Source: Pandoraea pneumonica
GTDB taxonomy: Bacteria > Pseudomonadota > Gammaproteobacteria > Burkholderiales > Burkholderiaceae
Direction of reading: 5' to 3'
Assembly (NCBI RefSeq): GCF_902459645.1
Contig: NZ_CABPSK010000001.1
Location: forward strand, 124,001 to 188,000
Length of the DNA stretch: 64,000 nt
Shown: piece after piece, positions 46,531-60,896 of the stretch
How the letters are laid out: each line of letters begins with the position of its first letter
Numbering within the stretch: the stretch's first letter is position 1
Position numbers and translations under genes: made by a program
The notes under the pieces: model-generated
Database searches by the model: none
What the model was told of the DNA's origin: nothing
What the model saw: the letters and a program-made list of their open reading frames with translations, nothing else

Positions 46531-46617
46531 GCGAGGATGGCGAAATTGGTAGACGCACCAGGTTTAGGTCCTGACGCCCGAAAGGGTGTAGGGGTTCGAG
46601 TCCCCTTCCTCGCACCA
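46531..46617 (+). tRNA. tRNA-Leu (anticodon UAG)
   Basis: The acceptor arms are GCGAGGA (46531-46537) and TCCTCGC, followed by ACCA, with the 3' CCA encoded in the gene. The D arm contains AAATTGGTAGA. The anticodon loop is TTTAGGT (46563-46569) with anticodon TAG (46565-46567). A long variable arm (ACGCCCGAAAGGGTGT) shows class II structure, and the T loop is GGTTCGAGTCC. The anticodon stem CCAGG/CCTGA has a C-A mismatch at its outermost pair. A T5 run follows. The Tn7-like module starts just downstream. Confidence 0.95.
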
Positions 46618-46644
46618 CGACTCTTTTTAAAATCAACGGGTTAC

Positions 46645-46688
46645 GTTGTCGAGTTACCCATAAGTTGGCGGTAAACGACAACTTATGG
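46645..46688. repeat. Candidate transposon-end repeats next to the tRNA
   Basis: GTTGTCGAGTTACC (46645-46658, plus strand) resembles GTTGTCGTTTACC read on the minus strand from 46682 to 46670. Overlapping them, CCATAAGTTG (46658-46667) and CAACTTATGG (46679-46688) form a 10-bp perfect inverted repeat. They lie 27-71 bases past the tRNA and could be transposase-binding sites or a terminator hairpin downstream of tniQ. Confidence 0.45.
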
Positions 46689-46771
46689 TTCCTAAAATTC
46701 CCCTTGATTCTCATTCTGCGAGAAAGCTCGTGGCGACGAAAGCCGTGCTCAGCTTCCGTCGCGATATTTCG

Positions 46772-48097
46772 TCAGTTGCGGCTCGCCAGAGCGAAGCGTT
46801 TCACGGCCTTCTGTTGGAATTGATTGGCTTCTGTACGGTCATATCGGCATTCTGTGGCGGCAGCCAACACCTTGCGCCGTGATACCGAGCGCCCCGCAAC
46901 TCTGGAAAGCCGTGCGTGGGTCTCAAGATAGTGGTCCCTGCGAACTGATACTCGAACGATTGCTTTATTGCGGATGCGCGTTTTCGTCCGTTGAAAGACG
47001 GCATCGCAAAGTTCGGGCAGTTCCTTTCTCAGAGTCCGCATCCCGATGCCGAGGGATGTGGCAATCTCCCCAAGGGTTCGCGACGACAGCGGATTCGCGA
47101 GGTCGCTTTCAATGGAATCACGAGTCGCGGCCCAATCGATAATTGTGCTCGCGTTGCGTCTTTGTCTCTCGACCAGTTCTGGGGCACATGTTCCCAGTCC
47201 CTGCACACACGTGTCTGGTTTGTTTCCAAGGATGGTGTCTTCCACTGGCACGTCGAAGAACTGAGAGAGTTTCAATAGTACCGGAAGCGAAGGCGTAGTT
47301 TTGGCATTGACCCAGCCATGCACATTCGATTTTGACTCGTCGAATTCTCGTGCGAATACACAGTACTTTCCTCCGTAGTGTGCCTTTATGGCGTGACTCA
47401 AAAACTGAGCGGTCCGGTCATGCCTCGGAGTGATGTGTTTGAACGCTGACGCAGCGTCGAGCAGTCTGGCGACTCTGCGCGCAACGTCGATTGAGCGAGC
47501 GTCTGCCGGCTCTGCAGGCGAAATAGCGAGGGGCTCATCGCAATGTCTGCATCGGCCGGGGGTGAAATACATGCGAGCCGCTGTTCGACCGCAGGCGCAG
47601 TAATCAAGCAGACGCACCTCATGAATCGGGCACGCGTTGACCATTGGAAGCGTCCAAAGCAAGCGGTCATACGGGCCCAATGGGGAGCTGAGGTCGTTCT
47701 CGACGCAGGCAGGGCAGTGACGCCCCGCACAAAGACCTAGTCGATATCCATGCAGCCAGGCTTCGAGAGGGAGTAGCGTCAACCGGTCTAGGTCATCGCG
47801 AACACAAAGCGTGTTCATGCCGTGCACCCATGCTTTTGCCATAGGACCGAATCCCGACATTGTTCCTTCCTTCCATCCATGCGAAAACGCGCTTCCGCCC
47901 ATTCCTGGCATGTGCTTAACGATTGGCCACACTTTGTTCTCAGCGACCGCGTGCGGGTGAACGTAATGACTGAGCGCAATTCTGCACACTAAGCTGAAGA
48001 GGTTTTCACGAGTCGCACCGTCCACGCCCAGTGGGGCAACGTCCGGGAAGTAAGCGCGCGTTGGTATGCCTTGGGCCTCAAGAAGTGCTTCAAGCAT
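46772..48097 (-). CDS. tniQ: TniQ/TnsD-family target-site selector
   Basis: A 441-residue protein with an N-terminal TniQ domain (about residues 10-170): FPDVAPLGVDGATRENLFSL, then LPLEAWLHGYRLGLCAGRHC. Zinc-binding cysteines appear as CPAC, CPIH, CAC and CRHC between residues 128 and 186. An XRE-like helix-turn-helix segment follows at about 230-290 (SNVHGWVNAKTTPSLPVLLK), and a second at about 341-375 (TLGEIATSLGIGMRTLRKEL). TnsD and TniQ proteins choose the insertion site and load TnsC; the DNA-binding extension here may recognise the tRNA-Leu region (inference). The start overlaps the tnsC stop by 8 bases (translational coupling). Confidence 0.9.
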   Translation of the reverse strand: MLEALLEAQGIPTRAYFPDVAPLGVDGATRENLFSLVCRIALSHYVHPHAVAENKVWPIVKHMPGMGGSAFSHGWKEGTMSGFGPMAKAWVHGMNTLCVRDDLDRLTLLPLEAWLHGYRLGLCAGRHCPACVENDLSSPLGPYDRLLWTLPMVNACPIHEVRLLDYCACGRTAARMYFTPGRCRHCDEPLAISPAEPADARSIDVARRVARLLDAASAFKHITPRHDRTAQFLSHAIKAHYGGKYCVFAREFDESKSNVHGWVNAKTTPSLPVLLKLSQFFDVPVEDTILGNKPDTCVQGLGTCAPELVERQRRNASTIIDWAATRDSIESDLANPLSSRTLGEIATSLGIGMRTLRKELPELCDAVFQRTKTRIRNKAIVRVSVRRDHYLETHARLSRVAGRSVSRRKVLAAATECRYDRTEANQFQQKAVKRFALASRN

Positions 48098-49241
48098 TTG
48101 CTGCCTTTGCTTTGTTGGAGCGCTTTTCCCCTGTCGACGAGGACGCGGCCTCTCGCAGGTCCGTCTGGTAAGAAATGGCCTCCTCGTGCTTGGCGCGGAG
48201 GCGGGTCATTGCATCCTTCGCTGGCATTCTGAGAAAGGGCGTGATGCAGAGCTCACCCCTGATAGTCTCGTCCGAAATACTCGCGAACTCTTCGGGCGAA
48301 GGCATTGCCGCATAGACAATGTCGTCGCTCCATTCGCATGAATTGATGTCCTTCCCCTTGTTCATCTGTTCGAGAAGCCGGAGGGCCATCATAAGGATGC
48401 GGATGAATTGGCCAGTGATTCCAAAACTTCCCAAAAGTAGGTCTTTCCAAAGGTGCTCGAACTTCGCGCCTGCTAGAGGGAAGCGAGCTTGCACGGAAGC
48501 GACGACCGAGCGAAACGCCTTTACATCTTCTGGGGTATTTCCGTATCTGGGAAAATGAATAATGTCCGTTCGCCTCGCCAACTGTCCGCTCGCTCGAACA
48601 ATCTCCTCCGTGCCGTATGCGCCGAGAAGTAGGAACGTAATCGACTTATTGTTGGCGAGCGATTTGAGGACGTTGCCCCAATCTTGGGATGAGTGCAACG
48701 CGTTTGCGAAGTGAATACACTCATCGAGGATGACGACTTTTGTTCGTCGTCTCGATAGGGCTTGACCTGCTACGTATTGAGCAAAATGTATGGCCGATTC
48801 CTCCCCGGGTGCTCGCGTTCCAAGGACGGAACTTGTTCCCGGTCGTTGCGAGAACTGAGCGGGGAGGTCCGCCTCGGGGACCATGAGTTCGTGCAAGATG
48901 GCTCTGTAGAAATCTCGCCAGGGAAATGTGCTCGACTTCGACTTGCAGGGCGGGACGTCAAGTTTAATGGCGGGGATAAATGAGGGGTCTGCACGCATTT
49001 CGTCCGCATATAGCGATATCGTGTCCTCGAGAATCTTTTCCCCAAGCTTCGTCTTGCCAATTCCGGGTGGCCCCACGACGGTTGTGAGGTTACCGCTTGC
49101 GAAGGGAGCAATTGACGTGCGAATGCGGTCGAGCGCGTCCATCATATTTCTATGAGGGAGGCGAATCGTGTCCTTCAGGTATTGCAGTTTGAGGTCCAGG
49201 CCTCCCTGCTGAGCCATTTCCAATGTGGGGCGAAGTATCAT
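48090..49241 (-). CDS. tnsC: TnsC/TniB-type AAA+ transposition ATPase
   Basis: A 383-residue AAA+ ATPase that in Tn7-like systems links the target selector to the transposase. Walker A is VVGPPGIGKTKLGEKI (about residues 55-70). Walker B is KVVILDECIHFANALH (about 172), and a sensor-1-like FLLLGAYGTEEI and the downstream Arg-rich RASGQLARRTDII follow. ATG 49241 follows the tnsAB stop by 10 bases; an in-frame ATG at 49283 would overlap tnsAB. The C-terminal tail is Lys/Ser/Ala-rich. It is larger than many TniB proteins (about 300), nearer to TnsC size class. Confidence 0.92.
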   Translation of the reverse strand: MILRPTLEMAQQGGLDLKLQYLKDTIRLPHRNMMDALDRIRTSIAPFASGNLTTVVGPPGIGKTKLGEKILEDTISLYADEMRADPSFIPAIKLDVPPCKSKSSTFPWRDFYRAILHELMVPEADLPAQFSQRPGTSSVLGTRAPGEESAIHFAQYVAGQALSRRRTKVVILDECIHFANALHSSQDWGNVLKSLANNKSITFLLLGAYGTEEIVRASGQLARRTDIIHFPRYGNTPEDVKAFRSVVASVQARFPLAGAKFEHLWKDLLLGSFGITGQFIRILMMALRLLEQMNKGKDINSCEWSDDIVYAAMPSPEEFASISDETIRGELCITPFLRMPAKDAMTRLRAKHEEAISYQTDLREAASSSTGEKRSNKAKAANA

Positions 49242-49251
49242 TTTGAGTCTC

Positions 49252-52089
49252 TCAGAATTGCTCCAGAATTTCGACGTCCGCATGGTCGTCTTTTTCTTCT
49301 CTGGCGGGTGGATGGGTGTCTGTCAGCGCGTCATCTGCCAGTGGTGTGTTCTCTGGCGCAGGCGTTTCGCTAATCTCATGCAGGTTGTTGTCCGGAGGCG
49401 GTGAGCGCCGATTCCTATTAGAAGGTGACGCGATTTCGTTCAGTCTTCCGTCTAGGTACGCGTCTATGAAGCGTTCAATTATTTCTAGTGTGATGACGCG
49501 GTTATTCACGCCAGACTTCTTGGCATCCTTGGTGACCACACGAATCGCGTCAAATACATACCTTAGTTCCCAGTGACTGAGCTTCTCCAGCTTCGCCGTG
49601 AGCTTGCAAACGCACTTGAGCCACTCTCCACCCAATGCTACGTAAATGTGCCCGCAGTTCCACGGGTCGTATACGGCGGGAAGCTTCATGCCGATGGCAT
49701 GCGAGAGCTTTTCGTGAAAGTAGGGAATCTCGTAGAAGAGCACACCATCCGACTTGACCAGCCGCGCCCCGCCTCGAGTGAAAGGAATGCAAGTACGCAG
49801 GTAGAAATCCTCGTCATATTCGACCTGCTGATGCGGCCGATTACCCGTACGTTCGTATCCGAAAGCCAGTGCGTCTGCAGGTGATACATGCGTGGCGGAG
49901 TGCGGGGCGGTGTTGTAAACGTGGTATGCGTAGTAGTCCAGCAACGCATGTAGCACCGGGAAATCCAGCAGGTCTGCATTGAGCGGATTGACTGACTTTG
50001 TCATCGTTCGAACGTGCTTCGTTGCCTTCGTATTTCCAATCAGGTTGTGTATGCATTCGGTGTTACTTGTTCCAAACCAGCGCTCAAGTACGCTGCCAAA
50101 GCGAGGGTGATGCGCTGGCCGAAAGCGGAGATGGATGTTGAATGACACGCACCAGTAATGCATTGCGTCGGACCTGAATTCGGCGCCGTTGTCGACGATT
50201 AGAATGTCCGGTTTTCTGCGATGCCGGGACACCATTTCGCGAAGAACCATCATCACCGACGCGAAATTCGGCGGATGCGCCGAGATGTACAACGCCAGCA
50301 CCGTCCGTGAATACGCATCGAAAGCGACGGTCAACCACGGTCGGATTTTTCGCTTCTCGCCATGGCGCGTCCGAATCACGACGTAACAGTCGAGTTGTGT
50401 GTGGTCGATGTGGACTACATGAAACGGGTGTAAGCCTTGAATCGAGTCTCCTCGCTCAAGGTTCAAGACCTGCGCTTGCAACTGATACGCGCGTCTGGCG
50501 CCGAGGCGAAGAGTTGTGTCCTTTAGCGCCTTACTTTGGTGGTAGTACCATTTGGTCGAAAGTGGCTTGAGTCCGGCCTTCTCGCAAGCCGTCACGTACT
50601 GCTTGTAGCTGAACTTCCCGGTGGGGTTCGTCGGAGTATTTCCGTCCGCTTCGACCTTGCTGAGGAGTTCGTCATGCGCCGGGTCATACCGCTTAGTTCG
50701 ATTGCCGCGACGTACTTTTGGCAAAAGGGCGATGATTTGCGCGACATCGCTTGTGCCGGCGAGACGTATCAGTTGCGTCCAGCGCTGTAGTGAGCGGCGG
50801 CTTGCGGCGCCGACATTCTTCCCGAGTCGAAATGCATTGACTTGCAGGCGTCGATTCGTCGCTTGATTCAACTCTTTCACCGTGACGTGGCGCAGGGACT
50901 CTGTTGGAGAGTCACCGTCCTGACGCACTGGCCGAATGTCGGTGCCGAATCGCCTTGCAAACTCTCGACGAGAGATGGAGAGAGCCTTGCCGCCTTCGCT
51001 CACCAAATGCACGTCATCAGGACTTACCGTGTGTATTTCGAACGTCTCGGAATCGAGTTCGAAAATCGCGCCCTCTCTAAGCGCGAAGTCGACCTGCCAC
51101 TGCACGAGGTGACGGGCTGGTCTCGAGCTTCGGAGGGCATCCAGGGCTTTTTGCGACAGGCAAACAATGGCCCGATGTTGCTCGCCAAAAAGGTCCTCTT
51201 CCCAGTCAGCCAGAATCTGCCTGTCCACAAGTGCTTTGTGGACGTGGTCGATGGTGAAGTACTGAACTTGCACGTGCTCACCCGATGCCGAAACCTCCAA
51301 TCCGCATGAGCGCGACATGAGCTGCTCAATCGTCGTGGATTCCAGTGCGCTGTCTTTCAGAACGGTCAGGATGCATTCAAGGTTGGTTCCCGGCACCGGT
51401 GCTGCTTCTGACGCGATGTAGGTCTGAAGGTACTCGACGTTATCTCGAAGCGTTGGCGATATTTCCGTGTTCGCACGCAGCCGATAGGTAATCCCAAGCC
51501 TGCCAAACTCATCTTGGCGCTCCGGGCACTTCCAGACTCCCGAATCGTTCTGGTATCTGTATGGCTGCTTTGCTACAAGTGTCTGCAGTTCTGCCTCAGT
51601 CTTCCACTCGTCCACGAAGACTTGTCCGTCTTCCACGACGAGAAAGTCTGCCGTGTACTGGGTGGGGGAGTTGTAGGTGGACTCTCTGCCCTTCATCAAA
51701 CGATGAACAGTTTGCCGATAGTGGATGGGCGGTGGTTGACTCGCGTAATAGTCCGTGGCGAGTGACATCTCGTAGGACATGGCCGCAGCGTACTCCACCA
51801 AACTCTCAGCCGTCTCGCTGACGTTGGTGAGCCGATTCACGTATTTGGTAACAACGTTACCTACCTTGGACTCGACCTTCCGCGATGGGCCTTCGTTAAG
51901 GATGCTCTGGCGCACGTAGTCCCTGCCTTCGTGTGTCAGAGCGAGAGTCTCCGTCATGCGCAAAAGCGCATCGGTGTCTATGTACTTCATGTCGATGCTC
52001 TGCAATGGCTCCCGCACGCCAAGACGCAAAAGGTCCTGACGTGCGGACGCCGTCCGCGCTGAGTCGGCTCGGCTTAGCGCGAATGACAA
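49252..52089 (-). CDS. tnsAB: TnsA-TnsB fusion transposase
   Basis: A 945-residue protein combining both Tn7 strand-cutting functions. The TnsA-like endonuclease region is at about residues 90-230. Glu99 in SLVEYAAAMSYEMS, Asp148 in YTADFLVVEDGQ and Lys163 in VFVDEWKTEAEL line up with the Glu63, Asp114 and Lys132 catalytic residues of Tn7 TnsA, including the FLV after the Asp. The TnsB part has N-terminal helix-turn-helix segments (about 400-540) and an rve catalytic core: Asp562 in HIDHTQLDCYV, Asp633 in IVDNGAEFRS and Glu669 in GSVLERWFGT (DD35E). The acidic C-terminal tail may hook TnsC. TTG 52089 is the longest start; a GTG or ATG (51990) inside could be the real one, still before the nuclease core. 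Confidence 0.92.
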   Translation of the reverse strand: MSFALSRADSARTASARQDLLRLGVREPLQSIDMKYIDTDALLRMTETLALTHEGRDYVRQSILNEGPSRKVESKVGNVVTKYVNRLTNVSETAESLVEYAAAMSYEMSLATDYYASQPPPIHYRQTVHRLMKGRESTYNSPTQYTADFLVVEDGQVFVDEWKTEAELQTLVAKQPYRYQNDSGVWKCPERQDEFGRLGITYRLRANTEISPTLRDNVEYLQTYIASEAAPVPGTNLECILTVLKDSALESTTIEQLMSRSCGLEVSASGEHVQVQYFTIDHVHKALVDRQILADWEEDLFGEQHRAIVCLSQKALDALRSSRPARHLVQWQVDFALREGAIFELDSETFEIHTVSPDDVHLVSEGGKALSISRREFARRFGTDIRPVRQDGDSPTESLRHVTVKELNQATNRRLQVNAFRLGKNVGAASRRSLQRWTQLIRLAGTSDVAQIIALLPKVRRGNRTKRYDPAHDELLSKVEADGNTPTNPTGKFSYKQYVTACEKAGLKPLSTKWYYHQSKALKDTTLRLGARRAYQLQAQVLNLERGDSIQGLHPFHVVHIDHTQLDCYVVIRTRHGEKRKIRPWLTVAFDAYSRTVLALYISAHPPNFASVMMVLREMVSRHRRKPDILIVDNGAEFRSDAMHYWCVSFNIHLRFRPAHHPRFGSVLERWFGTSNTECIHNLIGNTKATKHVRTMTKSVNPLNADLLDFPVLHALLDYYAYHVYNTAPHSATHVSPADALAFGYERTGNRPHQQVEYDEDFYLRTCIPFTRGGARLVKSDGVLFYEIPYFHEKLSHAIGMKLPAVYDPWNCGHIYVALGGEWLKCVCKLTAKLEKLSHWELRYVFDAIRVVTKDAKKSGVNNRVITLEIIERFIDAYLDGRLNEIASPSNRNRRSPPPDNNLHEISETPAPENTPLADDALTDTHPPAREEKDDHADVEILEQF

Positions 52090-52092
52090 CGG

Positions 52093-52123
52093 ACACTAGT
52101 CGCTCACGAAGGAGGGCTAGTGT
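52093..52123. repeat. Inverted repeat at the tnsAB start
   Basis: ACACTAG (52093-52099) and CTAGTGT (52117-52123) are perfect inverted copies 17 bases apart, a few bases before the tnsAB start. Likely an operator or a transposase-binding site; not established. Confidence 0.45.
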
Positions 52124-52318
52124 TACGACCTGTGGGGAAGGGGATTACAGTCGTCGGTGACGATGTCGTACGTTCAAAACGCGAACGCGTTGCGGCGGAC
52201 GTGCTCGATGCGACGGCGTGGAGCGCGCGTGCGCAGGGCAGGGGGTCGGCTTACGGGGGAGAAAAAGAGGATGCATGATTTCGTCTGGTTAGCGCTTCCT
52301 ACGGGCGAGCGCGGTCAT

Positions 52319-52356
52319 TTGACCCGATGGACGAAATCTGCGAAAATAGCGGGTCA
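52319..52356 (+). promoter_or_regulatory. Promoter flanked by an inverted repeat
   Basis: TTGACC (52319-52324), a 17-base spacer and GAAAAT (52342-52347). TGACCCG (52320-52326) and CGGGTCA (52350-52356) are perfect inverted copies that bracket the promoter from the -35 box to the expected start of transcription, as an operator would. Confidence 0.55.
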
Positions 52357-52429
52357 TGGGCGCGGTTTCGCAAGAGATCGCCCAAAAGGGGCATGGTTGG
52401 AGATTCTGACCTTGCCCCTTTTTCTTTTT
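52355..52429 (+). ncRNA. Candidate small structured RNA ending in a terminator
   Basis: Directly after the promoter are two hairpins. The first is GGGCG (52358-52362) with CGCCC (52379-52383). The second, terminator-type, is AAAAGGGGCA (52384-52393) with TGCCCCTTTT (52413-52422), followed by TCTTTTT. The implied transcript is about 70 bases and has no ribosome binding site or reading frame. It could be a regulatory RNA of the element; it matches no RNA family I recognise. Confidence 0.45.
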
Positions 52430-52644
52430 GCGGCCCGGATGCGTCTCGCGTTCTGGGTCGGGGGCAAGGTCATCAGAAACCTTTCTACGGTGGTAATGAT
52501 ATTTTCATAGGGTCCGAATCCTATCCGAAAAGTGCCCCCGCGTGCAAGCGTGATTTTCAACTTGATCGACGTTGCCGGATTTTGGGGTGGAGATGGGCGG
52601 AGATAAGTCGAAATTAACGGTATACTAATTGTGCGTATATTTAC

Positions 52645-53109
52645 CTACTTCCAAGTCCATCGTGATCGCTCAAAAATATGTTTGACGTAACTTGTTAGCG
52701 CTAGGTGCGTTCGCGCTTCGCTTAGTCCAAAATATGGGTGCACCATGAACGTCCAGGGGATGGCCCAGTTGGGAATCGGCGTCCATGAGTGTTCAATACA
52801 GATAAGCAGACTTTCGGGGGCGGTTTTAACCACACTTAGTTCGTCTGGCATGCTCCAAAGATCATTTAAATGTTCGACGGACTGGGGCGTAAATCGCGCG
52901 GCCATAGAATCCGGTAGTTTCTGAAGAAGCTCTCTCAACGATTTTTCATTTAGCCGGCGCGTGTGAAGGCTCAGTTCTATCGATGGGAATGACTGAAGCG
53001 TTTTCTCTAGAATTCTTGTATTTGTAGCCAGAGTTCCAGCAGGGAACGCATCTGGAAGGTGATGGAGCGGTAGTAGTACACCTTCAATACAAACATGCAT
53101 CGATAGCAT
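52645..53109 (-). CDS. Unknown protein in island
   Basis: A 154-residue protein with no recognised family. It shows alternating charged helices (RRLNEKSLRELLQKLPDSMA), a Trp/Pro-rich stretch (IEHSWTPIPNWAIPWTFMV) and a basic end (VKHIFERSRWTWK). No signal peptide or membrane helix. ATG 53109 lacks a close ribosome binding site (AAGGAG is 20 bases away). The frame is open to 53343, but that extension is antisense to the divergent gene and looks non-coding. Codon choice is AT-richer than in the core genes. Confidence 0.5.
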   Translation of the reverse strand: MLSMHVCIEGVLLPLHHLPDAFPAGTLATNTRILEKTLQSFPSIELSLHTRRLNEKSLRELLQKLPDSMAARFTPQSVEHLNDLWSMPDELSVVKTAPESLLICIEHSWTPIPNWAIPWTFMVHPYFGLSEARTHLALTSYVKHIFERSRWTWK

Positions 53110-53163
53110 TGTGTCAATTGAGTCCGCGCGAGCTCCTTGGCGACCTTTGGTCGTCCTATCTCG

Positions 53164-53844
53164 ATGCCGGTCACCGTGGCGATCGGGGAGCAAAGTGAGG
53201 TTCTTTTGAGTCACGTACCTACTCCTTGGACTCGACTGGCATCGCGCTGCGTCCGCAGCATGGTGCTCCGTCAAGGCATGACGGTAGACGACCTGTTGGT
53301 CGCGTTCGAGACGCTTGGGATCATGCACTCGCGCCGAAGCCATGAAGGGCGGCTCGATCGTGGCACCTTTGATTGCGCGTACTTTCTTCAGGTCATGGTC
53401 GCCTCACGGTCGACGTTTCCTCCGTATTGGGCACCTGCGCTCTTGAATGTAGACCCCGATGTTTGCGACGCTTCCAGCTTCGATTGGGACGCCGCATGCG
53501 TCGAGATTTTTACGTTGGAATGCCGGGCTGCCCTCTATCGAGCCAAACTAGAACTAGCAAATAATCCGCTTGAGCGGCAGGACGTGATTAATCGCCTGCT
53601 TAATGAGGTCAAAGGGGCGAGAGGTCGAGTTCCATTTACGCTGCTAATGTATCTCGCGATGTTTGCACCAATGATTGGTTTTGATTGCTATTTAAGTCTG
53701 CGTGACGTGATGTTGGCTGAGCGAGAGTTGCCTCTTCGTCCGCCGTCTGCTCCATCACGCGACATGACCGATGAGCGACGAATGTCTGCGTCAGTAGGTC
53801 GACCGATCGGCCTCGCGCCGCGAAACGGCGGGTCTGGGCAGTAG
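53164..53844 (+). CDS. DUF6471 domain protein
   Basis: A 226-residue protein. Residues 20-80 (TRLASRCVRSMVLRQGMTV, then DDLLVAFETLGIMHSRRS, then RLDRGTFDCAYFLQVMVA) fit the DUF6471 pattern, a small helix-turn-helix-like domain with a terminal RGTFxxxFFLQ-type motif. The C-terminal part has a hydrophobic stretch (FTLLMYLAMFAPMIGFDCYL) and a Pro/Arg-rich tail. The start is uncertain: ATG 53164, TTG 53137 or TTG 53206 (the last with GAGG upstream). It diverges from the unknown gene to its left, so the two may be a regulated pair. Confidence 0.65.
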   Translation: MPVTVAIGEQSEVLLSHVPTPWTRLASRCVRSMVLRQGMTVDDLLVAFETLGIMHSRRSHEGRLDRGTFDCAYFLQVMVASRSTFPPYWAPALLNVDPDVCDASSFDWDAACVEIFTLECRAALYRAKLELANNPLERQDVINRLLNEVKGARGRVPFTLLMYLAMFAPMIGFDCYLSLRDVMLAERELPLRPPSAPSRDMTDERRMSASVGRPIGLAPRNGGSGQ

Positions 53845-54056
53845 GAATTTCGCCATTTAGGCTCGAAAAATCGGTCAAAAATTCGTGATCAGCGTCTATT
53901 TTGGTGAGTAATATTACATACAATAATAGGTCGTTTCCCTTGGGACGCAAGGGCTGATTTTCCAGACTTCTCCGCCTTCTGCCCCGGAATTTTGTCCGCT
54001 TATGGCGAGCGCCAGCGTCGACCCCGCGCTTTTTCGATACTCACCGGCGCCGTCGG

Positions 54057-54266
54057 CTAACTCGGGGGATGCCCGTTGTAGCATCCGAGTAGTCGAAATA
54101 GAGCAGTAAATTCATACCCACACGTTTCGCAAACGTATTCTTGGTGCACGGTGACACTTCCAATACCGCATGCGCCCATAGTGACGCTCTCTGAACCGCA
54201 TTCAGGGCAGTGAGTCTTGCCTGTTGCGTACACACGGGATTCCCACTCGTTGGAGTTGCTTGCCAT
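54057..54266 (-). CDS. Small zinc-ribbon protein
   Basis: A 69-residue protein with a four-cysteine zinc ribbon: THCPECGSESV (first CxxC) and YVCETCGYEFTALF (second CxxC), 20-odd residues apart, plus an extra Cys in GACGIG. Such proteins bind zinc and often nucleic acid or act in protein contacts; nothing more can be said. ATG 54266 has AGAGG nine bases upstream; ATG 54275 is in frame too. It lies alone in the island between the DUF6471 gene and the paralogue pair. Confidence 0.65.
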   Translation of the reverse strand: MASNSNEWESRVYATGKTHCPECGSESVTMGACGIGSVTVHQEYVCETCGYEFTALFRLLGCYNGHPPS

Positions 54267-54760
54267 GATGTCCATCCTCTGAGGTCGGGAGGGGCTCGCC
54301 TCGCGTTCTTACGCAAATCGCCGATATCAGTGGATTCGCCCCGTATCCATGTTCCATCGAACACCGTAGGTCATCTTTGGTGGCTTCGCCAACGTTTTTA
54401 TCGCGTGCTCTCGATCCAGTCGACAGAGTGATTCACGGCACTCAGCCCCTTTAGTGAATGCGCTTACGGCATGAACCTACGCCACGTCGTTTAGCCGCTG
54501 GTGGTTGAGGGCAGGACGTCTTCGTCTCCGAAGTCACAGCGACCTACCGCCCCAAAAATCATGGTCTCTCGATATTCCTATACTCCTTCGCGCTAATCGT
54601 TTGGCGTCGACTCACCTGCTGTCATTTGGCCGATTACGTCGCCTATCCAGGTGCCGGGCAATCGTCCATCAAGTGTGGGGGATAGGGGAGCGGCCATCGG
54701 CTTGCCCACGACTTATCACCTCTTTCGAAGACAGCGTGCAATCTCTAGCAAGGAGCATAT
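54267..54760. other. Intergenic region in the island
   Basis: About 490 bases without a supported gene. It should carry the promoter of the gene at 54761, but no consensus pair stood out. GTCGTTTAGCC at 54487 and weaker look-alikes near 54593 and 54619 recall the GTCGTTTACC repeat next to the tRNA, a weak hint of transposase sites. Confidence 0.3.
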
Positions 54761-55351
54761 ATGCCAGTTCAACCGTATCTCGGAAAATACGTTGTATTTC
54801 AAGGTGTCACGCAGGAAACCGCGGCTTGGGCGCCGGACTTCCACCTTCTGTGCCCAACGTCCGGGCGCAGACTCGCAAATCGAATGCGAATCGAGGCAAT
54901 TCCTGGCTATGACCGATACACGAAGGGTCTCGAAGTCGGTGCCATTTACTCCTGGAAAACCAAGCGCGAGGAAGCGGTGATAGATGAGGGGCTTGGCTTC
55001 TACTCGTTCCTTGCCAAGTTGGCTCTTTTGGTTGGGCACGACTGGCGCGCCGAGAATCCGCCGGGCAGGCCGGGGCCGTTCTTCGAGCTTCTACGCTATG
55101 GGCTGCAACGGGCGCACATGAGTAGTTTTGTCGCAAGGAAACTGCTCCACGATTTCGACGATTGGGAGGCGAGGGTGGAGGCTGTTGGTGACTCGGACTT
55201 CTTGGCTCAATACCGCAAGACGGAGGCGTTGATTTTCTCGGCGAGATTCGGCGCGTTGTATTTCGATGGCGTCCCTGAACCTGAACCCTACGATTTTCGC
55301 CGGCTGACGGGGCTGATTTTCAATGGCTGCGGGGACGACGACCAAATTTAA
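54761..55351 (+). CDS. Unknown protein, first of a paralogous tandem pair
   Basis: A 196-residue soluble protein without a recognised family. Its second half (PGPFFELLRYGLQRAHMSSF, ARKLLHDFDDWEARV, YRKTEALIFSARFGALYF) is clearly related to the second half of the next gene product: PFFE, RKL, DFDxWEA, an aromatic-Y motif and a final G-aliphatic-F align without gaps. The N-terminal half differs. AAGGAG lies five to six bases before ATG 54761, a strong ribosome binding site. I infer a duplicated gene; immunity or defence function is possible but not shown. Confidence 0.75.
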   Translation: MPVQPYLGKYVVFQGVTQETAAWAPDFHLLCPTSGRRLANRMRIEAIPGYDRYTKGLEVGAIYSWKTKREEAVIDEGLGFYSFLAKLALLVGHDWRAENPPGRPGPFFELLRYGLQRAHMSSFVARKLLHDFDDWEARVEAVGDSDFLAQYRKTEALIFSARFGALYFDGVPEPEPYDFRRLTGLIFNGCGDDDQI

Positions 55352-55376
55352 CCGCTGAGCAAGCAAGGAGAATTTT

Positions 55377-55931
55377 GTGGCGACTTCGTACTATATCCAT
55401 TCGTTGCGCAACGTCAGCAAGCGTTTGCCGGGAGCTCCGAAAGTTCAGTGCTGGTGGAAAGACTCGCTGATAGCGGAACTCGCTCCGGGTTGTTTGGATG
55501 GTCTCGCGGACTATGACCTTGGAGACGTCAAAGATGAGGATGTGGCCGTGTACAGGGAAAATCCTTCGCAGGACGGATACAGTTTCGAGCAATTCTGCGA
55601 AAGACTGCTTCTTATCCTAATCGAAGGAAGAGAACTTGAGCCGGCACGCGATGTTGGCGCGTGGTGCGACGAAATCGCGGAGATCGTAGAGCGACGGGGT
55701 GGCTGGCACGACGACGAGGGGCGTGGGCCGTTCTTCGAGATGTTCCGAGACTTGTATCGCGGGAGACCTATGGACGACGACGTGTGCAGAAAGCTTGTGG
55801 CGGATTTTGACCGCTGGGAAGCTCATGCACAGAGCATCGGGAATAGAAAGTTCTACGACTACTACCAGATGCTTCGCGAGTGCTTTCGGTTCGCGTCAAG
55901 TAACGGCGTTGTGATATTTCCCTACGAGTAG
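55377..55931 (+). CDS. Unknown protein, second of a paralogous tandem pair
   Basis: A 184-residue acidic soluble protein. The C-terminal half (RGPFFEMFRDLYRGRPMDDD, CRKLVADFDRWEAHA, DYYQMLRECFRFASSNGVVI) matches the preceding gene product across about 65 residues. The pattern PFFEMF...AKL..DF...A....Y...F..A...G.V.F is one I associate with widespread uncharacterised actinobacterial and proteobacterial proteins (from memory, not checked). It starts with GTG 55377 and has AAGGAG six bases upstream, in the same arrangement as its neighbour. The 25-base gap indicates an operon. Confidence 0.75.
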   Translation: MATSYYIHSLRNVSKRLPGAPKVQCWWKDSLIAELAPGCLDGLADYDLGDVKDEDVAVYRENPSQDGYSFEQFCERLLLILIEGRELEPARDVGAWCDEIAEIVERRGGWHDDEGRGPFFEMFRDLYRGRPMDDDVCRKLVADFDRWEAHAQSIGNRKFYDYYQMLRECFRFASSNGVVIFPYE

Positions 55932-56013
55932 TCCGAGTCCAAGCAGTCGCACCTTCGGGCGCGGGTTGAGGGGCCGACGTAACGACGAAAGGAAACGAGC
56001 GACTCAACTAAAG

Positions 56014-56035
56014 GGAGGCCGACATGTCGGCCTCC
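56014..56035. terminator. Palindrome after the paralogue pair
   Basis: GGAGGCC (56014-56020), loop GACATGTC, GGCCTCC (56029-56035): a perfect 22-base palindrome 82 bases past the last island gene, without a T tract. It may be a weak terminator. The remaining 55932-56217 holds no supported gene. Confidence 0.45.
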
Positions 56036-56190
56036 TGCTGAGATTGCGTGACGGTGACTGCGTGTCCCTGTGGCACATCCTGAGCCGGAAGGCGCGCAGC
56101 GAGCATCGGTTCTGCCACTATTTTATGGATGATACGACCGAAATCGAGTGCTAGCATTCACCAGCGGCCTTAGTCAGCCATATCGGTTGC

Positions 56191-56212
56191 GGCACGTCGG
56201 AGGTGACGTGCC
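56191..56212. terminator. Hairpin downstream of the siderophore receptor gene
   Basis: GGCACGTC (56191-56198), loop GGAGGT, GACGTGCC (56205-56212), just 5 bases past the receptor stop on the minus strand. No T tract follows, so terminator strength is uncertain. Confidence 0.5.
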
Positions 56213-56217
56213 GGCCA

Positions 56218-58665
56218 TCACCAGTTGTATTTCAATCCGGCTAGCACGATCCGGCCCTGACCCCAGTTACAGGTATCGCCGCTGCACGACGAGACGAAGC
56301 GCCGGTCGAACAGGTTGCTCGCGTTGAGCGAGACAAGCCAGCCGCGCATTCCCGGGAAGCGACGGCCCAAGTCGTAGCGCACCGACAGGTCGACGAGCGT
56401 AACCGAAGGCACCTGGAATGAGTTTGCCGCGTCGCCATACGTCGCGCCGACGTAGCGCACGCCACCACCGAATTGCAGCCCCGACAGATTCCCCGCCTTG
56501 ACCGTGTAATCGGCCCACGCCGAGGCCATGTTGCGAGGAATGCCGACCGGCGACTTGCCCTGCACGCTGTTGCTCTGTGTGTTCACGAGGTTCGTGTAGG
56601 TGTAGTTGGCGATCAGTTGCAGGTTGTTTGTCAGGCTCGCATGCGCCTCGAGTTCGATGCCACGCGAGCGTACCTGCCCTGTCTGCACACTGAAGTTCGT
56701 GTGCGCGGGGTCTGCCGTCGTCACGTTGTCCTGGGTGAGATGGAATCCACTCACCGTGACGAAGCTGTTGTAGCCGCGCGGCTGGAATTTCACGCCGACT
56801 TCGAACTGCTTGCCTGTCGTTGGGACGAACGACTTGCCCGAAAAATCCGTGCCGATCTGTGGTGCGAACGAAGTCGAGTAGCTCGCGTACGGCGCAATCC
56901 CGTTGTCGAACTTGTACACGCCGCCTAGACGCCACGTAAACGCGTGATTGCTCTGCGATGTGGTGGCGCTGCCCGCCTTGTACGGCACGAATTCCTCGTC
57001 GGTCCAGTCTTGCCTAACGCCCGCGAGGAAAGTCCATCTGCCGACTTCGATCAGATCCTGCGCGTAGGCGCCGAGCTGGTCGAGCCGCTGAGCGCCGGAC
57101 GTGCCGAACATGAAATTCGGATACGGAATCGATTGCCCGTACACTGGATTCGCGATCGAAAGCGACGGTGTGTCGTCGAAGCTCCCGAGGAAGTCGTGAT
57201 CGTATTGCAGGTGCTGATAGTCGAGCCCGACAGTGACCTTCTGTGTCACCGTGCCGAGCGCGAATTTCGCGCTGAGCTGGTTGTCGAGCGTGTGCATGTT
57301 GACCGTGCCCGAGTTCATGTAGGGCGTGCGGTTGATTGTGGTCTGATCCGCCGACAGCGAGTCGTAGCTCACGTACTTCACGGTCTGTGTGTTGTGCAGG
57401 AACCGGTAGTTTTGCTTGAACGACCACACGTCGTTGAACGCGTGTGAGAACGCGTAGCCGATGGACGCCTGCGTCTTGCGAAAACTGTCGAAATCCGGGT
57501 CACCGATGTCGAGTCCACGCGGCAGCATGATCGCGCCGGGTTTGACCGTCCCTACGACCGGCACGAAGTTGTAGTTGCCCGCCTCGGGGTCGACCTGATA
57601 GCTCGCGAACACGGTCAGGCTCGTGTCTTGCGTGGGACGCCAAGTCAGGCTCGGCGCGATGGCGAAGCGCTTTTCGCGCACGTTGTTGGTCTGCGTGCCC
57701 GTGCGAAAAGCGTCGCCCGTGATGCGGTACAGGACCTTGCCGTCCTGGTCGAGAGGGCCGCTGAAATCTGCGAAGAGCTGGGCGCGTCCGTAACTACCGG
57801 TCTGGACGCCAATCTCATGCATGGGCGTGTCGGTCGGCATTTTGCTCTGGAGATTGACCACTCCCCCCGGCGAGCCCTGACCATAGAGTACGGACGCTGG
57901 GCCGTGGACAAATTCGATGCGCTCCAGCATGTACGGATCGAAGCTCGTGACGTTATAGCCCGCGATAGCGCCCGGCAATCGGAGGCCATTCAGATATTCC
58001 TCCACCTGAAAACCGCGCGCGTAGAGATATTCGAGCGAATCGGTGTTGGTGCCGCGCTGCTCGGGGTTGATGCCGGATGTGTAGCGGAGTGCCTGCGCCA
58101 CGCTTTGAACGTTCTGCACATCCATCTGGTCGCGCGTGACGACGGAGATAGCCTGCGGCGTTTTGATGAGCGCGAGGTCAGTCTTGGCCCCTGCGCTGCT
58201 CGTGTTGGCCACGTACCCGATGGCCGGCTGATCACGCGAAGCGTCTGCCGTAACGTTGGTCGTCGGCAATTGCGCGGCCGTGTCGTCGGAGGCGCTGCGC
58301 TTGAGCGTGTAGGCACCGCTGCGTGAGACGATCACCTGAATGCCGGAACCGGCGAGCACACGGTCGAGTGCTTCGCGGGGCGTGAGGGTGCCGTGCACAG
58401 CGGGCGCGGTACGGCCCGCGACGGTGTCCTCATCGAACAGCACCTGCTGCTTCGATTGTGCCGAGAAGGCGCGCAGCGCGCTGTCGAGCGACTGCGAGGC
58501 AATGTCGAATGTGACGCGCGTCTGCTGTGCGTGTGCGCATGGTGCGCCGACGGTGAGCAACGCTGCAGCGGCCGTGACCGTGAGTGCCGCCGGTCGGAGC
58601 CCGAGCGACGCGCATCGCAAAACACCGGCTGACATCCATGTGCCGCCGCGATTCCCTGCTTTCAT
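56218..58665 (-). CDS. TonB-dependent siderophore receptor with signalling domain
   Basis: An 815-residue outer membrane receptor. After a signal peptide (LTVTAAAALLTVGAPCAHA) comes an STN secretin/TonB short domain (FDIASQSLDSALRAFSAQSK, about residues 55-125), which signals to FecR. The plug domain follows (TPQAISVVTRDQMDVQNVQS; EFVHGPASVLYGQGSPGGVV), then a 22-strand-type barrel ending LAGLKYNW with the typical C-terminal aromatic. The plug sequence is of ferrichrome/hydroxamate type. ATG 58665 has GGGGA upstream; a frame to 58782 adds a non-signal extension. It forms an operon with fecI and fecR. Confidence 0.94.
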   Translation of the reverse strand: MKAGNRGGTWMSAGVLRCASLGLRPAALTVTAAAALLTVGAPCAHAQQTRVTFDIASQSLDSALRAFSAQSKQQVLFDEDTVAGRTAPAVHGTLTPREALDRVLAGSGIQVIVSRSGAYTLKRSASDDTAAQLPTTNVTADASRDQPAIGYVANTSSAGAKTDLALIKTPQAISVVTRDQMDVQNVQSVAQALRYTSGINPEQRGTNTDSLEYLYARGFQVEEYLNGLRLPGAIAGYNVTSFDPYMLERIEFVHGPASVLYGQGSPGGVVNLQSKMPTDTPMHEIGVQTGSYGRAQLFADFSGPLDQDGKVLYRITGDAFRTGTQTNNVREKRFAIAPSLTWRPTQDTSLTVFASYQVDPEAGNYNFVPVVGTVKPGAIMLPRGLDIGDPDFDSFRKTQASIGYAFSHAFNDVWSFKQNYRFLHNTQTVKYVSYDSLSADQTTINRTPYMNSGTVNMHTLDNQLSAKFALGTVTQKVTVGLDYQHLQYDHDFLGSFDDTPSLSIANPVYGQSIPYPNFMFGTSGAQRLDQLGAYAQDLIEVGRWTFLAGVRQDWTDEEFVPYKAGSATTSQSNHAFTWRLGGVYKFDNGIAPYASYSTSFAPQIGTDFSGKSFVPTTGKQFEVGVKFQPRGYNSFVTVSGFHLTQDNVTTADPAHTNFSVQTGQVRSRGIELEAHASLTNNLQLIANYTYTNLVNTQSNSVQGKSPVGIPRNMASAWADYTVKAGNLSGLQFGGGVRYVGATYGDAANSFQVPSVTLVDLSVRYDLGRRFPGMRGWLVSLNASNLFDRRFVSSCSGDTCNWGQGRIVLAGLKYNW

Positions 58666-58756
58666 CCTGCTTCCCCGTGTTGTCATGAAACCGAACGATT
58701 CCGGCCTCTCAGACGTAAGACGCTGTTGGCAACGAAGTGGGAACCCAACGTGTGAA

Positions 58757-59803
58757 TTATTTATTCGAGACGATGCGTACACCGCCGTCGGGCTGCGGTT
58801 GTACGCGCACGGGAAGTAGGTCGGGCAGCGACTCCACGAAGGCGCGAGGTGCGGTTGTCGTGGCGAATCCGGAGACGGGCAGGGCCCCTAGTACCGGACT
58901 GTCGAGCGTGACGGGTTTGCCGAGATAGCGGCTGAGTGTCTGGGCCACTTGTGAAAGCGGCGTGCGGCGGAATGCCAATTGCCCGCTGCGCCAGTCTCCA
59001 ATATCGTCGGCGTGCGGCGAGAAGGCGACGGTCGCGCCGGTTATCGTGTCGACGGCGACGCCCCGATTCGCGGTAAGCACGATGACGCGGTCTCTCTCCT
59101 CACGGTCGGGACGGACTTCCACGCGGCCCTCTCGCACGCTGACGACGAGACTCGGCGGACCGGCATCGACGTTGAACATCGTGCCGACGACGCGCACTTC
59201 GGTGCGGCCGCTCGTCACGGTGAACGGGCGCTCGGCCGCGTGCGCTACCTGAAAATAGGCTTCGCCTTCGCGCAGCACGACTTCGCGTCGTCGGGGGTAG
59301 TAGCGCACTTGCACCTCGGTGTCGGTGTTCAGGGCGAGGGCGGATCCGTCCGGCAGTGTCACCGTGCGGATTTCGCCGTGGGCCGTGCGCAGATCGAGCC
59401 GGTAGCCGGGGAGGTTGTCATAGGCGATCCAGCCGCCGACACAGAGCACCAGACTGGCAAAGGCGAACGCCGACGCGAACCATGCGCGATGTCGGCCTGC
59501 CCCGCGGGTGCGGAGCGTGTCGCGACGCGGTGTGGTCGCGAAATCTGGCTTCGCGGCACTCTCGCTAGCGAGCACGGGGCGCGGTACCGCCGCAAACGCG
59601 TGCCAGGTCATGGCAAGCGACTCGAAGGCGGCGCGATGCGCGTTGTCGGCAGCGAGCCATCGGTCGAGCGCCTGCTGATCGGCGTCGGACCAACTGTCGT
59701 GCTGGGTTCGTATGCGCCATTCGGCGGCGACCTCGTGAACTGCCAGCGTATCGGGAGTGACGGGGTCACGCGGCGCGACGGGGGGAGTCTGCGCGGACGT
59801 CAT
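58757..59803 (-). CDS. FecR-type anti-sigma regulator
   Basis: A 348-residue inner membrane regulator. An N-terminal cytoplasmic DUF4880 segment (AAEWRIRTQHDSWSDADQQA) precedes one membrane helix (WFASAFAFASLVLCVGGWIA, about residues 108-127). The periplasmic FecR domain follows (GEIRTVTLPDGSALALNTDT; VSVREGRVEVRPD), then a C-terminal part (FRRTPLSQVAQTLSRYLGKP). It transmits receptor occupancy to FecI. ATG 59803 overlaps the fecI stop by four bases (translational coupling). Confidence 0.93.
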   Translation of the reverse strand: MTSAQTPPVAPRDPVTPDTLAVHEVAAEWRIRTQHDSWSDADQQALDRWLAADNAHRAAFESLAMTWHAFAAVPRPVLASESAAKPDFATTPRRDTLRTRGAGRHRAWFASAFAFASLVLCVGGWIAYDNLPGYRLDLRTAHGEIRTVTLPDGSALALNTDTEVQVRYYPRRREVVLREGEAYFQVAHAAERPFTVTSGRTEVRVVGTMFNVDAGPPSLVVSVREGRVEVRPDREERDRVIVLTANRGVAVDTITGATVAFSPHADDIGDWRSGQLAFRRTPLSQVAQTLSRYLGKPVTLDSPVLGALPVSGFATTTAPRAFVESLPDLLPVRVQPQPDGGVRIVSNK

Positions 59804-60396
59804 GCTTCGTCCTCGTTGCGAAGTTCGGCGAGTGCGGGTCCCATCTGGTCGGCGCGCGCATATTGCACGCGCAGTTCGCAATAGGCGAAAGCGCGGCTGA
59901 GATGCTTCACGACCATACGACGGGAGATTTGCATGCGTTCGGCGACTTCGTCCTGAGTGAGACCATCGAAGCGATAGAGCACCAGCGCTTCACGTTGACG
60001 TTCGGGTAACTCGGCGAGTGCCTGTTGCAGACGTTCGAGGCGCTGGCGGCTCGCGGCAACGTGCTCGGGGTTTGCGTTACCGGGGGCGGGGAGTGCGTCG
60101 GCTTCGAGTTCGGAATCGCCGAACGATACCATGTGCGCCGGATCTTGCCGATCGCGATGCCGGTCGTGCAGAAGGTTGGCCGCAATCTGGAAGAGATAGG
60201 GGCGATGCTTGTCGGGCGCAGGCACAGGCTCGTTTTTGCCGAAGCGGGCGAAGAAGCGGGTGAACGACTCCTGCATGGCGTCTTCAGCCTCCGCACGGTT
60301 GCCTAGCCGATGCTGAAGGAATCGCAACAGCGGCAGGCGGCACGACGCATAGGCCTGTGCCACCCACGACCGCGAATCACCGTCCGAAGCCTCCAC
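59800..60396 (-). CDS. FecI-type ECF sigma factor
   Basis: A 198-residue ECF sigma factor of the iron-starvation (FecI) group. Region 2 contains EDAMQESFTRFFARF and RPYLFQIAANLLHDRHRD. Region 4 contains LAELPERQREALVLYRFDGL and the helix-turn-helix TQDEVAERMQISRRMVVKHL. The start is GTG 60396, the first start after the Fur-box region. First gene of the fecI-fecR-receptor operon. Confidence 0.93.
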   Translation of the reverse strand: MEASDGDSRSWVAQAYASCRLPLLRFLQHRLGNRAEAEDAMQESFTRFFARFGKNEPVPAPDKHRPYLFQIAANLLHDRHRDRQDPAHMVSFGDSELEADALPAPGNANPEHVAASRQRLERLQQALAELPERQREALVLYRFDGLTQDEVAERMQISRRMVVKHLSRAFAYCELRVQYARADQMGPALAELRNEDEA

Positions 60397-60423
60397 TGTG
60401 CGCCACCATCTCCCTAATTAAAT

Positions 60424-60442
60424 GCAAATGAGAATCGATTGC
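60424..60442 (-). promoter_or_regulatory. Fur box upstream of fecI
   Basis: GCAAATGAGAATCGATTGC is a near-palindromic 19-mer that agrees with the Fur consensus (GATAATGATAATCATTATC) at about twelve positions. It lies 28 bases before the fecI start, where Fur with iron would block transcription. Confidence 0.7.
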
Positions 60443-60720
60443 AATTATAGGGAAAGAGAAACGAATTGGAAATCAGAAAATGCTGGTCGTTGTCTCGACA
60501 GGGCATCGTGTTGCGGTATGGAGTGGCGGAAACTATCGAGGTTGACCAAATCGACCGACGGGTGCTCCTGGCTCGGATCAATTGTCTAGAAGCCACGTTG
60601 ACGCATGTGTCGATATGCGACCTGCGGCGATTGACGGTCTCGGACGCTCGGAGCGCAATTCCAAATATGCTGGACGCGTATCATTTTCTACTCGTGGGTC
60701 AATCAATCCAAGTCAGTCGT
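60443..60720. other. Intergenic region between fecI and the fluoride operon
   Basis: AT-richer sequence with no supported gene. A short rightward open frame from a TTG at 60466 runs through the riboswitch and is not believable. The fecI promoter should lie near 60440-60480. Confidence 0.4.
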
Positions 60721-60749
60721 TTGCCGGCGTCGTCCTGCTCTGGTAGACT
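60721..60749 (+). promoter_or_regulatory. Promoter of the fluoride-responsive operon
   Basis: TTGCCG (60721-60726), a 17-base spacer and TAGACT (60744-60749). Transcription would start about 7 bases later, immediately before the riboswitch aptamer. Confidence 0.7.
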
Positions 60750-60761
60750 CCGCAGTCGAAC

Positions 60762-60815
60762 TACGGAGATGGCATTCCTCCCGTAACCGCCCTTGCAGGG
60801 CTGATGATGCCTGCT
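60762..60815 (+). promoter_or_regulatory. Fluoride riboswitch (crcB motif)
   Basis: All conserved parts of the fluoride aptamer are present: GGAGATGGCATTCCTCC (60765-60781), the AACCGCC strand (60785-60791) that pairs with GGC, and GGCTGATGATGCCTGC (60799-60814). Binding fluoride turns on the downstream gene. The expression platform probably includes the CCTG/CAGG hairpin near 60820-60835. It lies 82 bases before the CLC-F gene, exactly the expected target class. Confidence 0.96.
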
Positions 60816-60896
60816 GAATCCTGGATACAGGAGGATGCAGGACGCCCTTGCTCTCCTTTGTCCAGGTTTTTCGTGTCTGATTAACCTGGAAACCTC

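What the first reader, a model, noticed from the sequence alone, without database searches (positions are those of the whole stretch)
49252..52089. Natural TnsA-TnsB fusion transposase
One 945-residue protein contains a TnsA-type nuclease core (Glu99, Asp148, Lys163, with flanking residues that align to the Tn7 TnsA catalytic region) followed by a complete TnsB DD35E domain (Asp562, Asp633, Glu669). Fused TnsAB proteins are known from some CRISPR-associated transposons, but here there is no cas gene and no CRISPR array in the 64 kb. The fusion would give cut-and-paste movement by a single polypeptide in a betaproteobacterial chromosome.
Basis: partly seen in the sequence, partly recalled or inferred. 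Interest (0 to 1): 0.8.

Follow-up and report, generated by a model that had tools for sequence, protein, structure and literature searches.

The report
tRNA-homing Tn7-like transposon, fused TnsAB
A bacterial jumping DNA segment carries one protein that joins the two cutting enzymes most of its relatives keep separate, and it sits just past a transfer-RNA gene; it is a well-formed new example of a known kind of transposon rather than a new mechanism.

Summary
The ORF encodes a TnsA endonuclease domain fused to a TnsB DDE transposase; the six named residues are present and the frame is open. The likely start is the ATG at 51990 (912 aa). It heads an operon tnsAB-tnsC-tniQ/tnsD, and all three proteins match chains of one solved complex, 9bw1, taken to be PmcCAST (type I-B2).

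I delimited the element, which runs off the window: 63,746 bp, identical 24-bp inverted ends, duplication TACGT, starting 29 nt past tRNA-Leu(UAG). Pandoraea aquatica carries a 39,154-bp sister with the same ends, another duplication (GTAGG) and mostly other cargo. In 17 of 28 genome-contig loci an end motif starts 27-30 nt past a tRNA or tmRNA gene.

CRISPR-free fused TnsAB elements and tRNA sites are already described (PMC11406308, passages), and nothing suggests that one polypeptide suffices: TnsC and a target selector are encoded beside it. Verdict: intact-looking new member of a known kind; tmRNA sites are the least expected part. No activity or structure was tested.

The parts
46531..46617 (+). 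tRNA-Leu (anticodon TAG): attachment gene; its 3' end faces the element
   Evidence: ARAGORN; same tRNA without this element in relatives
46642..46646 (.). target-site duplication TACGT (left copy; right copy lies just after contig position 234392)
46647..64000 (.). Tn7-like element, part inside the window; whole element is G000:C1:170647-234392, 63,746 bp (window-extended 46647-110392)
46647..46670 (+). tRNA-proximal 24-bp terminal inverted repeat TGTCGAGTTACCCATAAGTTGGCG, identical to the distal end
46676..46690 (-). second putative TnsB-binding repeat (inverted AACCATAAGTTGTCG)
   Evidence: similar arrangement in relatives
46772..48097 (-). tniQ/tnsD, 441 aa, target selector
   Evidence: PF06527 8.3e-8; chain TnsD 8v32_J/9bw1 8e-22 over residues 11-380
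48090..49283 (-). tnsC, 397 aa, AAA+ ATPase; overlaps tnsAB and tniQ
   Evidence: PF05621 TniB 9.4e-10; chain TnsC 8fcu_Q/9bw1 3e-22 over residues 35-280
49252..51990 (-). tnsAB fusion, likely start ATG at 51990 (912 aa); the frame is open to a TTG at 52089
51331..51990 (-). TnsA-type nuclease region (E99, D148, E161, K163 in 945-aa numbering)
49636..50439 (-). TnsB catalytic and C-terminal region (rve 574-662, Mu-transpos_C 773-818; D562, D633, E669)
53137..53844 (+). cargo ORF with DUF6471, in the stretch shared with the P. aquatica element
54761..55931 (+). two cargo ORFs without a significant Pfam match, in the stretch shared with the P. aquatica element
56218..60396 (-). cargo outside the 9.5 kb shared with the P. 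aquatica element: TonB-receptor-, FecR- and sigma-factor-like ORFs (named by eye, not tested with Pfam)
   Evidence: lies inside the element ends
60897..62219 (+). cargo: ClC-type chloride channel
   Evidence: PF00654 3e-74
62668..63625 (-). cargo: HIT-domain protein and universal stress protein
   Evidence: PF01230, PF00582

Best explanation
This is a complete-looking, probably mobile or recently mobile Tn7-like transposon of the fused-TnsAB lineage, without CRISPR. Inferred mechanism: TniQ/TnsD (441 aa) binds the 3' end of tRNA-Leu(UAG) and recruits TnsC. TnsC in turn brings in TnsAB bound to repeats at both 24-bp ends. The TnsB domain nicks and joins the 3' ends, while the fused TnsA domain cuts the 5' ends. 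The outcome is a cut-and-paste simple insertion 29 nt past the tRNA with a 5-bp duplication, which leaves the tRNA intact. Shown here: gene content, catalytic residues, ends, duplications, the site, and a second insertion in another species. Inferred: protein-protein and protein-DNA contacts, cut-and-paste chemistry, present activity.
For: All three proteins match chains of the same solved complex 9bw1: TnsAB 8e-78, TnsC 3e-22, TnsD 8e-22. TnsA and DDE residues are conserved. Identical 24-bp inverted ends starting TGT with repeated sub-sites, 5-bp duplications TACGT (window) and GTAGG (P. aquatica). Element DNA is 97% identical over 9.5 kb between the two species while the left flank is 77% identical over 1.9 kb. 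The stretches fetched from G009, G010, G015, G020 and G027 have the tRNA-Leu without the element; G020 shares the window's flank sequence just past the tRNA. In 17 of 28 genome-contig loci (P. aquatica among them) an end motif starts 27-30 nt after the 3' end of a tRNA or tmRNA gene; no random control was run for this spacing. CyCAST was shown to home 30-33 nt downstream of a tRNA-Leu with TnsAB, TnsC and TnsD (PMC10293859, passages).
Against: No transposition was measured. The window TnsA domain alone scores against no Pfam TnsA model. The structure could not be predicted. Nine of 28 relatives have no RNA gene recognised beside the operon (four are on contigs of 3.5-11.1 kb), one (L085) has a tRNA-Gly but no recognised end, one (L091) a divergent end, and L087 has an end beside a protein gene. 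RNA target changes about as often on the TniQ tree (10 changes, 20 labelled rows) as on the TnsAB tree (9 changes, 19 labelled rows), so the trees do not single out TniQ as what sets the target.
Confidence: 0.93

Rival explanations
1. A CAST remnant: a type I-B2 or I-D CRISPR-associated transposon that lost its Cascade genes, so the lack of CRISPR is derived.
For: All three proteins match chains of 9bw1, taken to be PmcCAST.
Against: In the TnsAB tree the PmcCAST row sits with six cyanobacterial plasmid rows (7 rows, 100/99) and the window in a separate 27-row, mostly proteobacterial clade (100/99); five rows, four of them proteobacterial, fall outside both, and the root is arbitrary. Cas5 has no match in 24 of 25 genomes searched, window genome included; the one hit was not shown to lie near its element. 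tniQ ends 125 bp from the element end, so no cas gene is left there.
Confidence: 0.04
2. A decayed or domesticated element: ends and genes look complete, but the element no longer moves, or moves replicatively because the TnsA domain is impaired.
For: The window's TnsA domain is the one of 14 that misses PF08722 at E 0.1, and the window pair sits on a long branch (1.93).
Against: All named catalytic positions retained; both copies have exact 5-bp duplications and identical 24-bp ends; 99% TnsAB identity between two species whose left flanks are 77% identical implies recent movement.
Confidence: 0.1
3. Chance assembly or misreading: an ordinary DDE transposase with an unrelated N-terminal extension.
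For: NCBIfam's only hits are IS481 and IS3 models, far below their cut-offs; no Pfam TnsA hit on the protein itself.
Against: The N-terminal region aligns over its length to 9bw1_M, and 13 of 14 homologous N-terminal domains match PF08722.
Confidence: 0.01

Closest known systems
Tn7744 / PmcCAST (type I-B2 CAST, Peltigera membranacea cyanobiont 210A), taken to be complex 9bw1
   Same: Fused TnsAB matched over residues 52-849, TnsC over 35-280, TnsD over 11-380; tRNA attachment site (PMC11406308, passages)
   Different: No Cascade or CRISPR array found, one TniQ/TnsD found in the operon, separate TnsAB clade
Tn7745 / CyCAST (type I-D CAST)
   Same: Homes 30-33 nt downstream of a tRNA-Leu with TnsAB+TnsC+TnsD (PMC10293859, passages); here 29 nt
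   Different: CyCAST also has Cascade I-D and a small TniQ; here neither was found. No direct sequence comparison with CyCAST was made
CRISPR-free fused-TnsAB Tn7-like elements
   Same: The same lineage as described in PMC11406308 (passages); five cyanobacterial plasmid stretches carry the fusion and an ATPase gene with no cas gene annotated in the part viewed
   Different: Different host phylum, own ends, cargo and tRNA-Leu site; of those five plasmid stretches only one has a TniQ protein annotated
Tn7
   Same: TnsA/TnsB/TnsC/TnsD plan, TGT..ACA ends with several TnsB sites, 5-bp duplication, insertion past a conserved gene (PMC11406308, passages)
   Different: TnsA and TnsB separate in Tn7; glmS instead of tRNA; no TnsE model among the 40 ORFs scanned here

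Membership tests
Tn7-like transposon | TnsB-type DDE transposase | tested here: met
   rve and Mu-transpos_C over cut-off; DDE invariant in 9 aligned fusions
Tn7-like transposon | TnsC AAA+ ATPase | tested here: met
   TniB model over cut-off, TnsC chain 3e-22
Tn7-like transposon | TnsA and/or TniQ family protein | tested here: met
   TniQ model over cut-off; TnsA region through homologues
Tn7-like transposon | TGT..ACA ends with repeated TnsB sites and a 5-bp duplication | tested here: met
   Identical 24-bp ends, repeats, TACGT and GTAGG duplications; TnsB binding itself not tested
Fused-TnsAB, tRNA-homing subfamily (lineage of I-B2/I-D CASTs) | TnsA and TnsB fused in one protein | tested here: met
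Fused-TnsAB, tRNA-homing subfamily (lineage of I-B2/I-D CASTs) | insertion about 30 nt downstream of a tRNA gene | tested here: met
   29 nt in both Pandoraea copies
Fused-TnsAB, tRNA-homing subfamily (lineage of I-B2/I-D CASTs) | TnsD itself recognises the tRNA gene | not testable with these tools
   Homology to the TnsD chain only; tree comparison inconclusive
CRISPR-associated transposon (CAST) | Cascade or Cas12k genes and a CRISPR array in the element | tested here: not met
   No CRISPR-like repeats in the 63.7 kb, no Cas5 match in the genome, no cas family among 40 of 61 listed element ORFs scanned with Pfam
PD-(D/E)XK nuclease (TnsA fold) | three-dimensional fold | not tested
   Structure prediction switched off; inferred from alignment to 9bw1

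The most novel reading that the evidence does not exclude
The window element belongs to a mostly proteobacterial, CRISPR-free fused-TnsAB clade whose target selectors have diversified to the 3' ends of structural RNA genes in general: several tRNAs, tRNAs that look intron-containing, and repeatedly tmRNA (6 of the 17 loci with an end beside an RNA gene), at a nearly fixed 27-30 nt. tmRNA as a TnsD/TniQ attachment site would be a new site type.
Probability: 0.5. Interest if true: 0.45.

Novelty: new member of a known kind. Interest (0 to 1): 0.33.

Why it matters
It gives a fully delimited natural TnsAB element with exact ends, duplications, insertions in two species and tRNA sites without it, so it can be tested directly as a compact three-gene, protein-guided insertion system that needs no guide RNA. 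It is also the kind of CRISPR-free relative from which I-B2/I-D CASTs could have been built. The cargo (Hachiman genes, a TIR protein, a reverse transcriptase, ion transporters, a stress protein) fits the known role of Tn7-like elements as carriers of defence and other accessory genes.

Tried and rejected
Terminal ends were first sought inside the window by repeat finding and by the point where identity to the P. aquatica element falls (about 56055). That point proved to be a change of cargo, not the end; the true end is 54 kb further on. The own-genome search with PF08722 found nothing and could have been misread as absence of TnsA; its control did not ring either. The nine-row alignment A1 was too divergent for the collection scan. 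Counting RNA-target changes on the TniQ versus TnsAB trees gave no preference (10 on 20 labelled rows, 9 on 19). The PADLOC scan of 41 ORFs listed only 25 of 63 families, so it is not used as proof that cas genes are absent. No random control was run for the RNA-to-end spacing, and several end motifs, as well as the RNA 3' ends of L076 and L080, were picked by eye before the gap was computed. Recalled primary sources not read: Hsieh and Peters 2023 (two look-ups by recalled identifiers, not held) and Saito and others 2021 (not looked up).
Full report
Observation. The minus-strand ORF 49252-52089 is open for 945 codons from a TTG. Aligned relatives have a start near an in-frame ATG at codon 34, window position 51990, so a 912-aa protein is more likely. 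In 9 aligned fusions, one of them cut by a contig end, the DDE triad is invariant. In 14 TnsA domains E99, D148 and E161 are invariant, while K163 is K in 11 and R in 3.

Is the N-terminal part TnsA? The direct profile test fails on the window protein: Pfam reports only rve and Mu-transpos_C, and the genome gives no PF08722 match, although the control of that search did not ring either. The indirect test succeeds: 13 of 14 homologous domains match PF08722 at E 0.1, best 1.2e-8, the window's being the exception, and their joint profile finds 9bw1_M at 1.5e-59 and a PseCAST TnsA part at 2e-4. A single-sequence search already aligns residues 52-849 to 9bw1_M at 8e-78. The entry 9bw1 appears under all three proteins, with chains named Integrase, TnsC and TnsD. 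I take it to be the PmcCAST TnsABCD structure described in the abstract seen, but the link between code and paper is recalled. No fold prediction could be made.

Operon and site. tnsAB overlaps tnsC (48090-49283), which overlaps tniQ (46772-48097). TnsC matches the 9bw1/8fcu TnsC at 3e-22, with an equal score for a second AAA+ chain, 9g0f. TniQ matches the TnsD of 8v32/9bw1 over residues 11-380 (8e-22), better than the TniQ of 8fcu (1e-7). Downstream lies tRNA-Leu(TAG) at 46531-46617, its 3' end facing the operon.

Ends. Comparison with an unnamed genus relative, G001, showed 97% identity from 46647 to about 56.1 kb. One search names a locus, L064, on a contig of exactly G001's contig length as Pandoraea aquatica LMG 31011, so the genus is Pandoraea. 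The tRNA-proximal end begins TGTCGAGTTACCCATAAGTTGGCG. Stretches of five relatives have the tRNA-Leu without this element; one, G020, shares the window's flank just past the tRNA and gave the expected right flank. Searching for that found the distal end at G000:C1:234392, with the same 24 bp inverted and TACGT on both sides; in G001 the same 24 bp with GTAGG on both sides. The elements are 63,746 and 39,154 bp. They share 9.5 kb at the operon end (97%), 0.7 kb at the distal end (89%) and two short internal matches; no other match was reported at E 1e-10. Element G+C is 54.8% against 62.8% in the left flank.

Relatives. Among 61 genomes from the genus, family and order, 14 have some match at E 1e-3, but only the window's genome and G001 over the whole length. 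In the order 10 of 399 genomes match at E 1e-25, window included; one of these, G181, in two pieces and one, G098, over the TnsB part only. In the class 2 of 369 match at 1e-40, window included, the other over residues 397-829. A scan of genome contigs gave 28 loci. In 22 of 28 two ORFs of tnsC- and tniQ-like length follow tnsAB, judged by order and length alone. In 17 of 28 an end motif related to the window's begins 27-30 nt after the 3' end of an RNA gene: tRNA-Leu (1), -Met (4), -Ser (1), -Gly (2), an undetermined tRNA (1), two tRNA 3' halves that look intron-containing (L076 by eye; L080 beside an Rfam group I intron) and tmRNA (6). ARAGORN's tag for the tmRNA of L075 is odd. Of the other 11, L085 has a tRNA-Gly but no recognised end, L091 a tRNA-Phe and a divergent end, and nine show no adjacent RNA gene, four of these on contigs of 3.5-11.1 kb. 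Two loci of the order scan, L061 and L062, have an end 25 and 26 nt past a tRNA-Ser.

Phylogeny. In a 39-row TnsAB tree the PmcCAST row groups with six cyanobacterial plasmid rows (100/99), and the window lies in a separate 27-row clade (100/99), mostly Proteobacteria with some Acidobacteriota and Nitrospirota; five rows (L049, L051, L053, L087, L091) fall outside both. Caveats: several long branches; the join of the window pair with L068 may be long-branch attraction, as the program warned; no AU test was run; the root is arbitrary. Cas5 had no match in 24 of 25 genomes searched; the hit, in G435, was not shown to be near the element. The control rang in 6 of 14 genomes.

Cargo (40 of 61 listed ORFs scanned with Pfam). 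Besides the operon: DUF6471, ClC channel, HIT, universal stress protein, HAD-like hydrolase, enolase, Na/Ca exchanger, CMAS, MFS, two MutS-V proteins, histidine phosphatase, dynamin-like protein, DUF1254/1214, TIR protein, PAP2, HamA, DEAD helicase, HNH_2, nucleotidyltransferase, CrcB, a helix-turn-helix protein and a reverse transcriptase. PADLOC reports HamA, HamB and ThsB1 models among 41 ORFs; that these are the HamA, helicase and TIR ORFs is inferred, as the table does not name the member.

Comparison with what is known. The review PMC11406308 (passages seen) states that I-B2 and I-D CASTs evolved from a Tn7-like subfamily with fused TnsA-TnsB and a TnsD adapted to different tRNA genes, with various non-CRISPR targeting systems besides. 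PMC10293859 (section 8 and passages seen) marks TnsAB fusions on a tree of 6,384 TnsC homologues and shows CyCAST homing 30-33 nt past tRNA-Leu. PMC8649781 (passages) notes integration downstream of tRNAs; its title names defence cargo. The window element fits all of this. tmRNA as an attachment site for Tn7-like elements was not seen in the passages read: tmRNA and ssrA do not occur in PMC11406308, nor tmRNA in PMC10293859. The search for Tn7-like with tmRNA gave 9 papers and the one with TnsD, ssrA, attachment site and Tn7-like (three of four needed) 24, 20 listed, one of them with a single ssrA occurrence (listings only); no title is about it. The library lacks Hsieh and Peters 2023, so priority is not claimed. 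Pandoraea with Tn7 gave 7 papers, none about such an element by title (listing only).

Mechanism. Shown: components, residues, ends, duplications, site. Inferred from Tn7 and PmcCAST: TniQ/TnsD marks the tRNA 3' end, TnsC bridges, the TnsB domain joins 3' ends and the fused TnsA domain cuts 5' ends, giving simple insertions. Fusion fixes TnsA:TnsB stoichiometry at 1:1 and may replace TnsC-mediated recruitment of TnsA (inference). I rate membership at 0.93 and interest modest: a good example, not a surprise to specialists.

Noticed in passing
L066, L067, L071, L074, L075, L089: Ends of fused-TnsAB elements lie 27-30 nt past tmRNA genes, a site type not seen in the papers read.
   Followed up: partly
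L066, L074, L089 (Holophagaceae): Here the RNA-proximal end is on the tnsAB side, whereas in the window and the other loci with an end beside an RNA gene it is on the tniQ side; element orientation at the attachment site has flipped in this branch.
   Followed up: no
L050, L065, L066, L069 TnsA region: The conserved TnsA lysine (window K163) is arginine in these rows; whether second-strand cleavage is kept is open.
   Followed up: no
L087 around 15051-15350: An end of this family lies just past the stop codon of a protein gene whose C-terminus reads like DnaN (recalled motif), so not all relatives use RNA genes.
   Followed up: no
G000:C1:234393 to about 280820 (L094-L096): Beyond the element's distal end lies a second, prophage-like stretch (phage tail tip protein) whose far junction holds a tRNA-Leu 3' fragment; the transposon sits between tRNA-Leu and it. 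Sequence just past this tRNA differs among relatives, as at an insertion hotspot.
   Followed up: partly
window-extended 96647-99594 (L093:12647-15594), 92402-93385, 103263-105068: Cargo holds HamA and a DEAD helicase (Hachiman), a TIR protein and a reverse-transcriptase ORF.
   Followed up: partly
window-extended 75885-79093: Two adjacent ORFs of 558 and 519 aa each carry only a MutS domain V match.
   Followed up: no
L080 17743-18002: Group I intron beside the element end in a Steroidobacter MAG; the attachment tRNA appears intron-containing, as perhaps in L076.
   Followed up: partly
9bw1_M at the first DDE position: The solved chain has Ala where relatives have the first catalytic Asp (HIAHT versus HIDHT), probably an engineered substitution (inference).
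   Followed up: no
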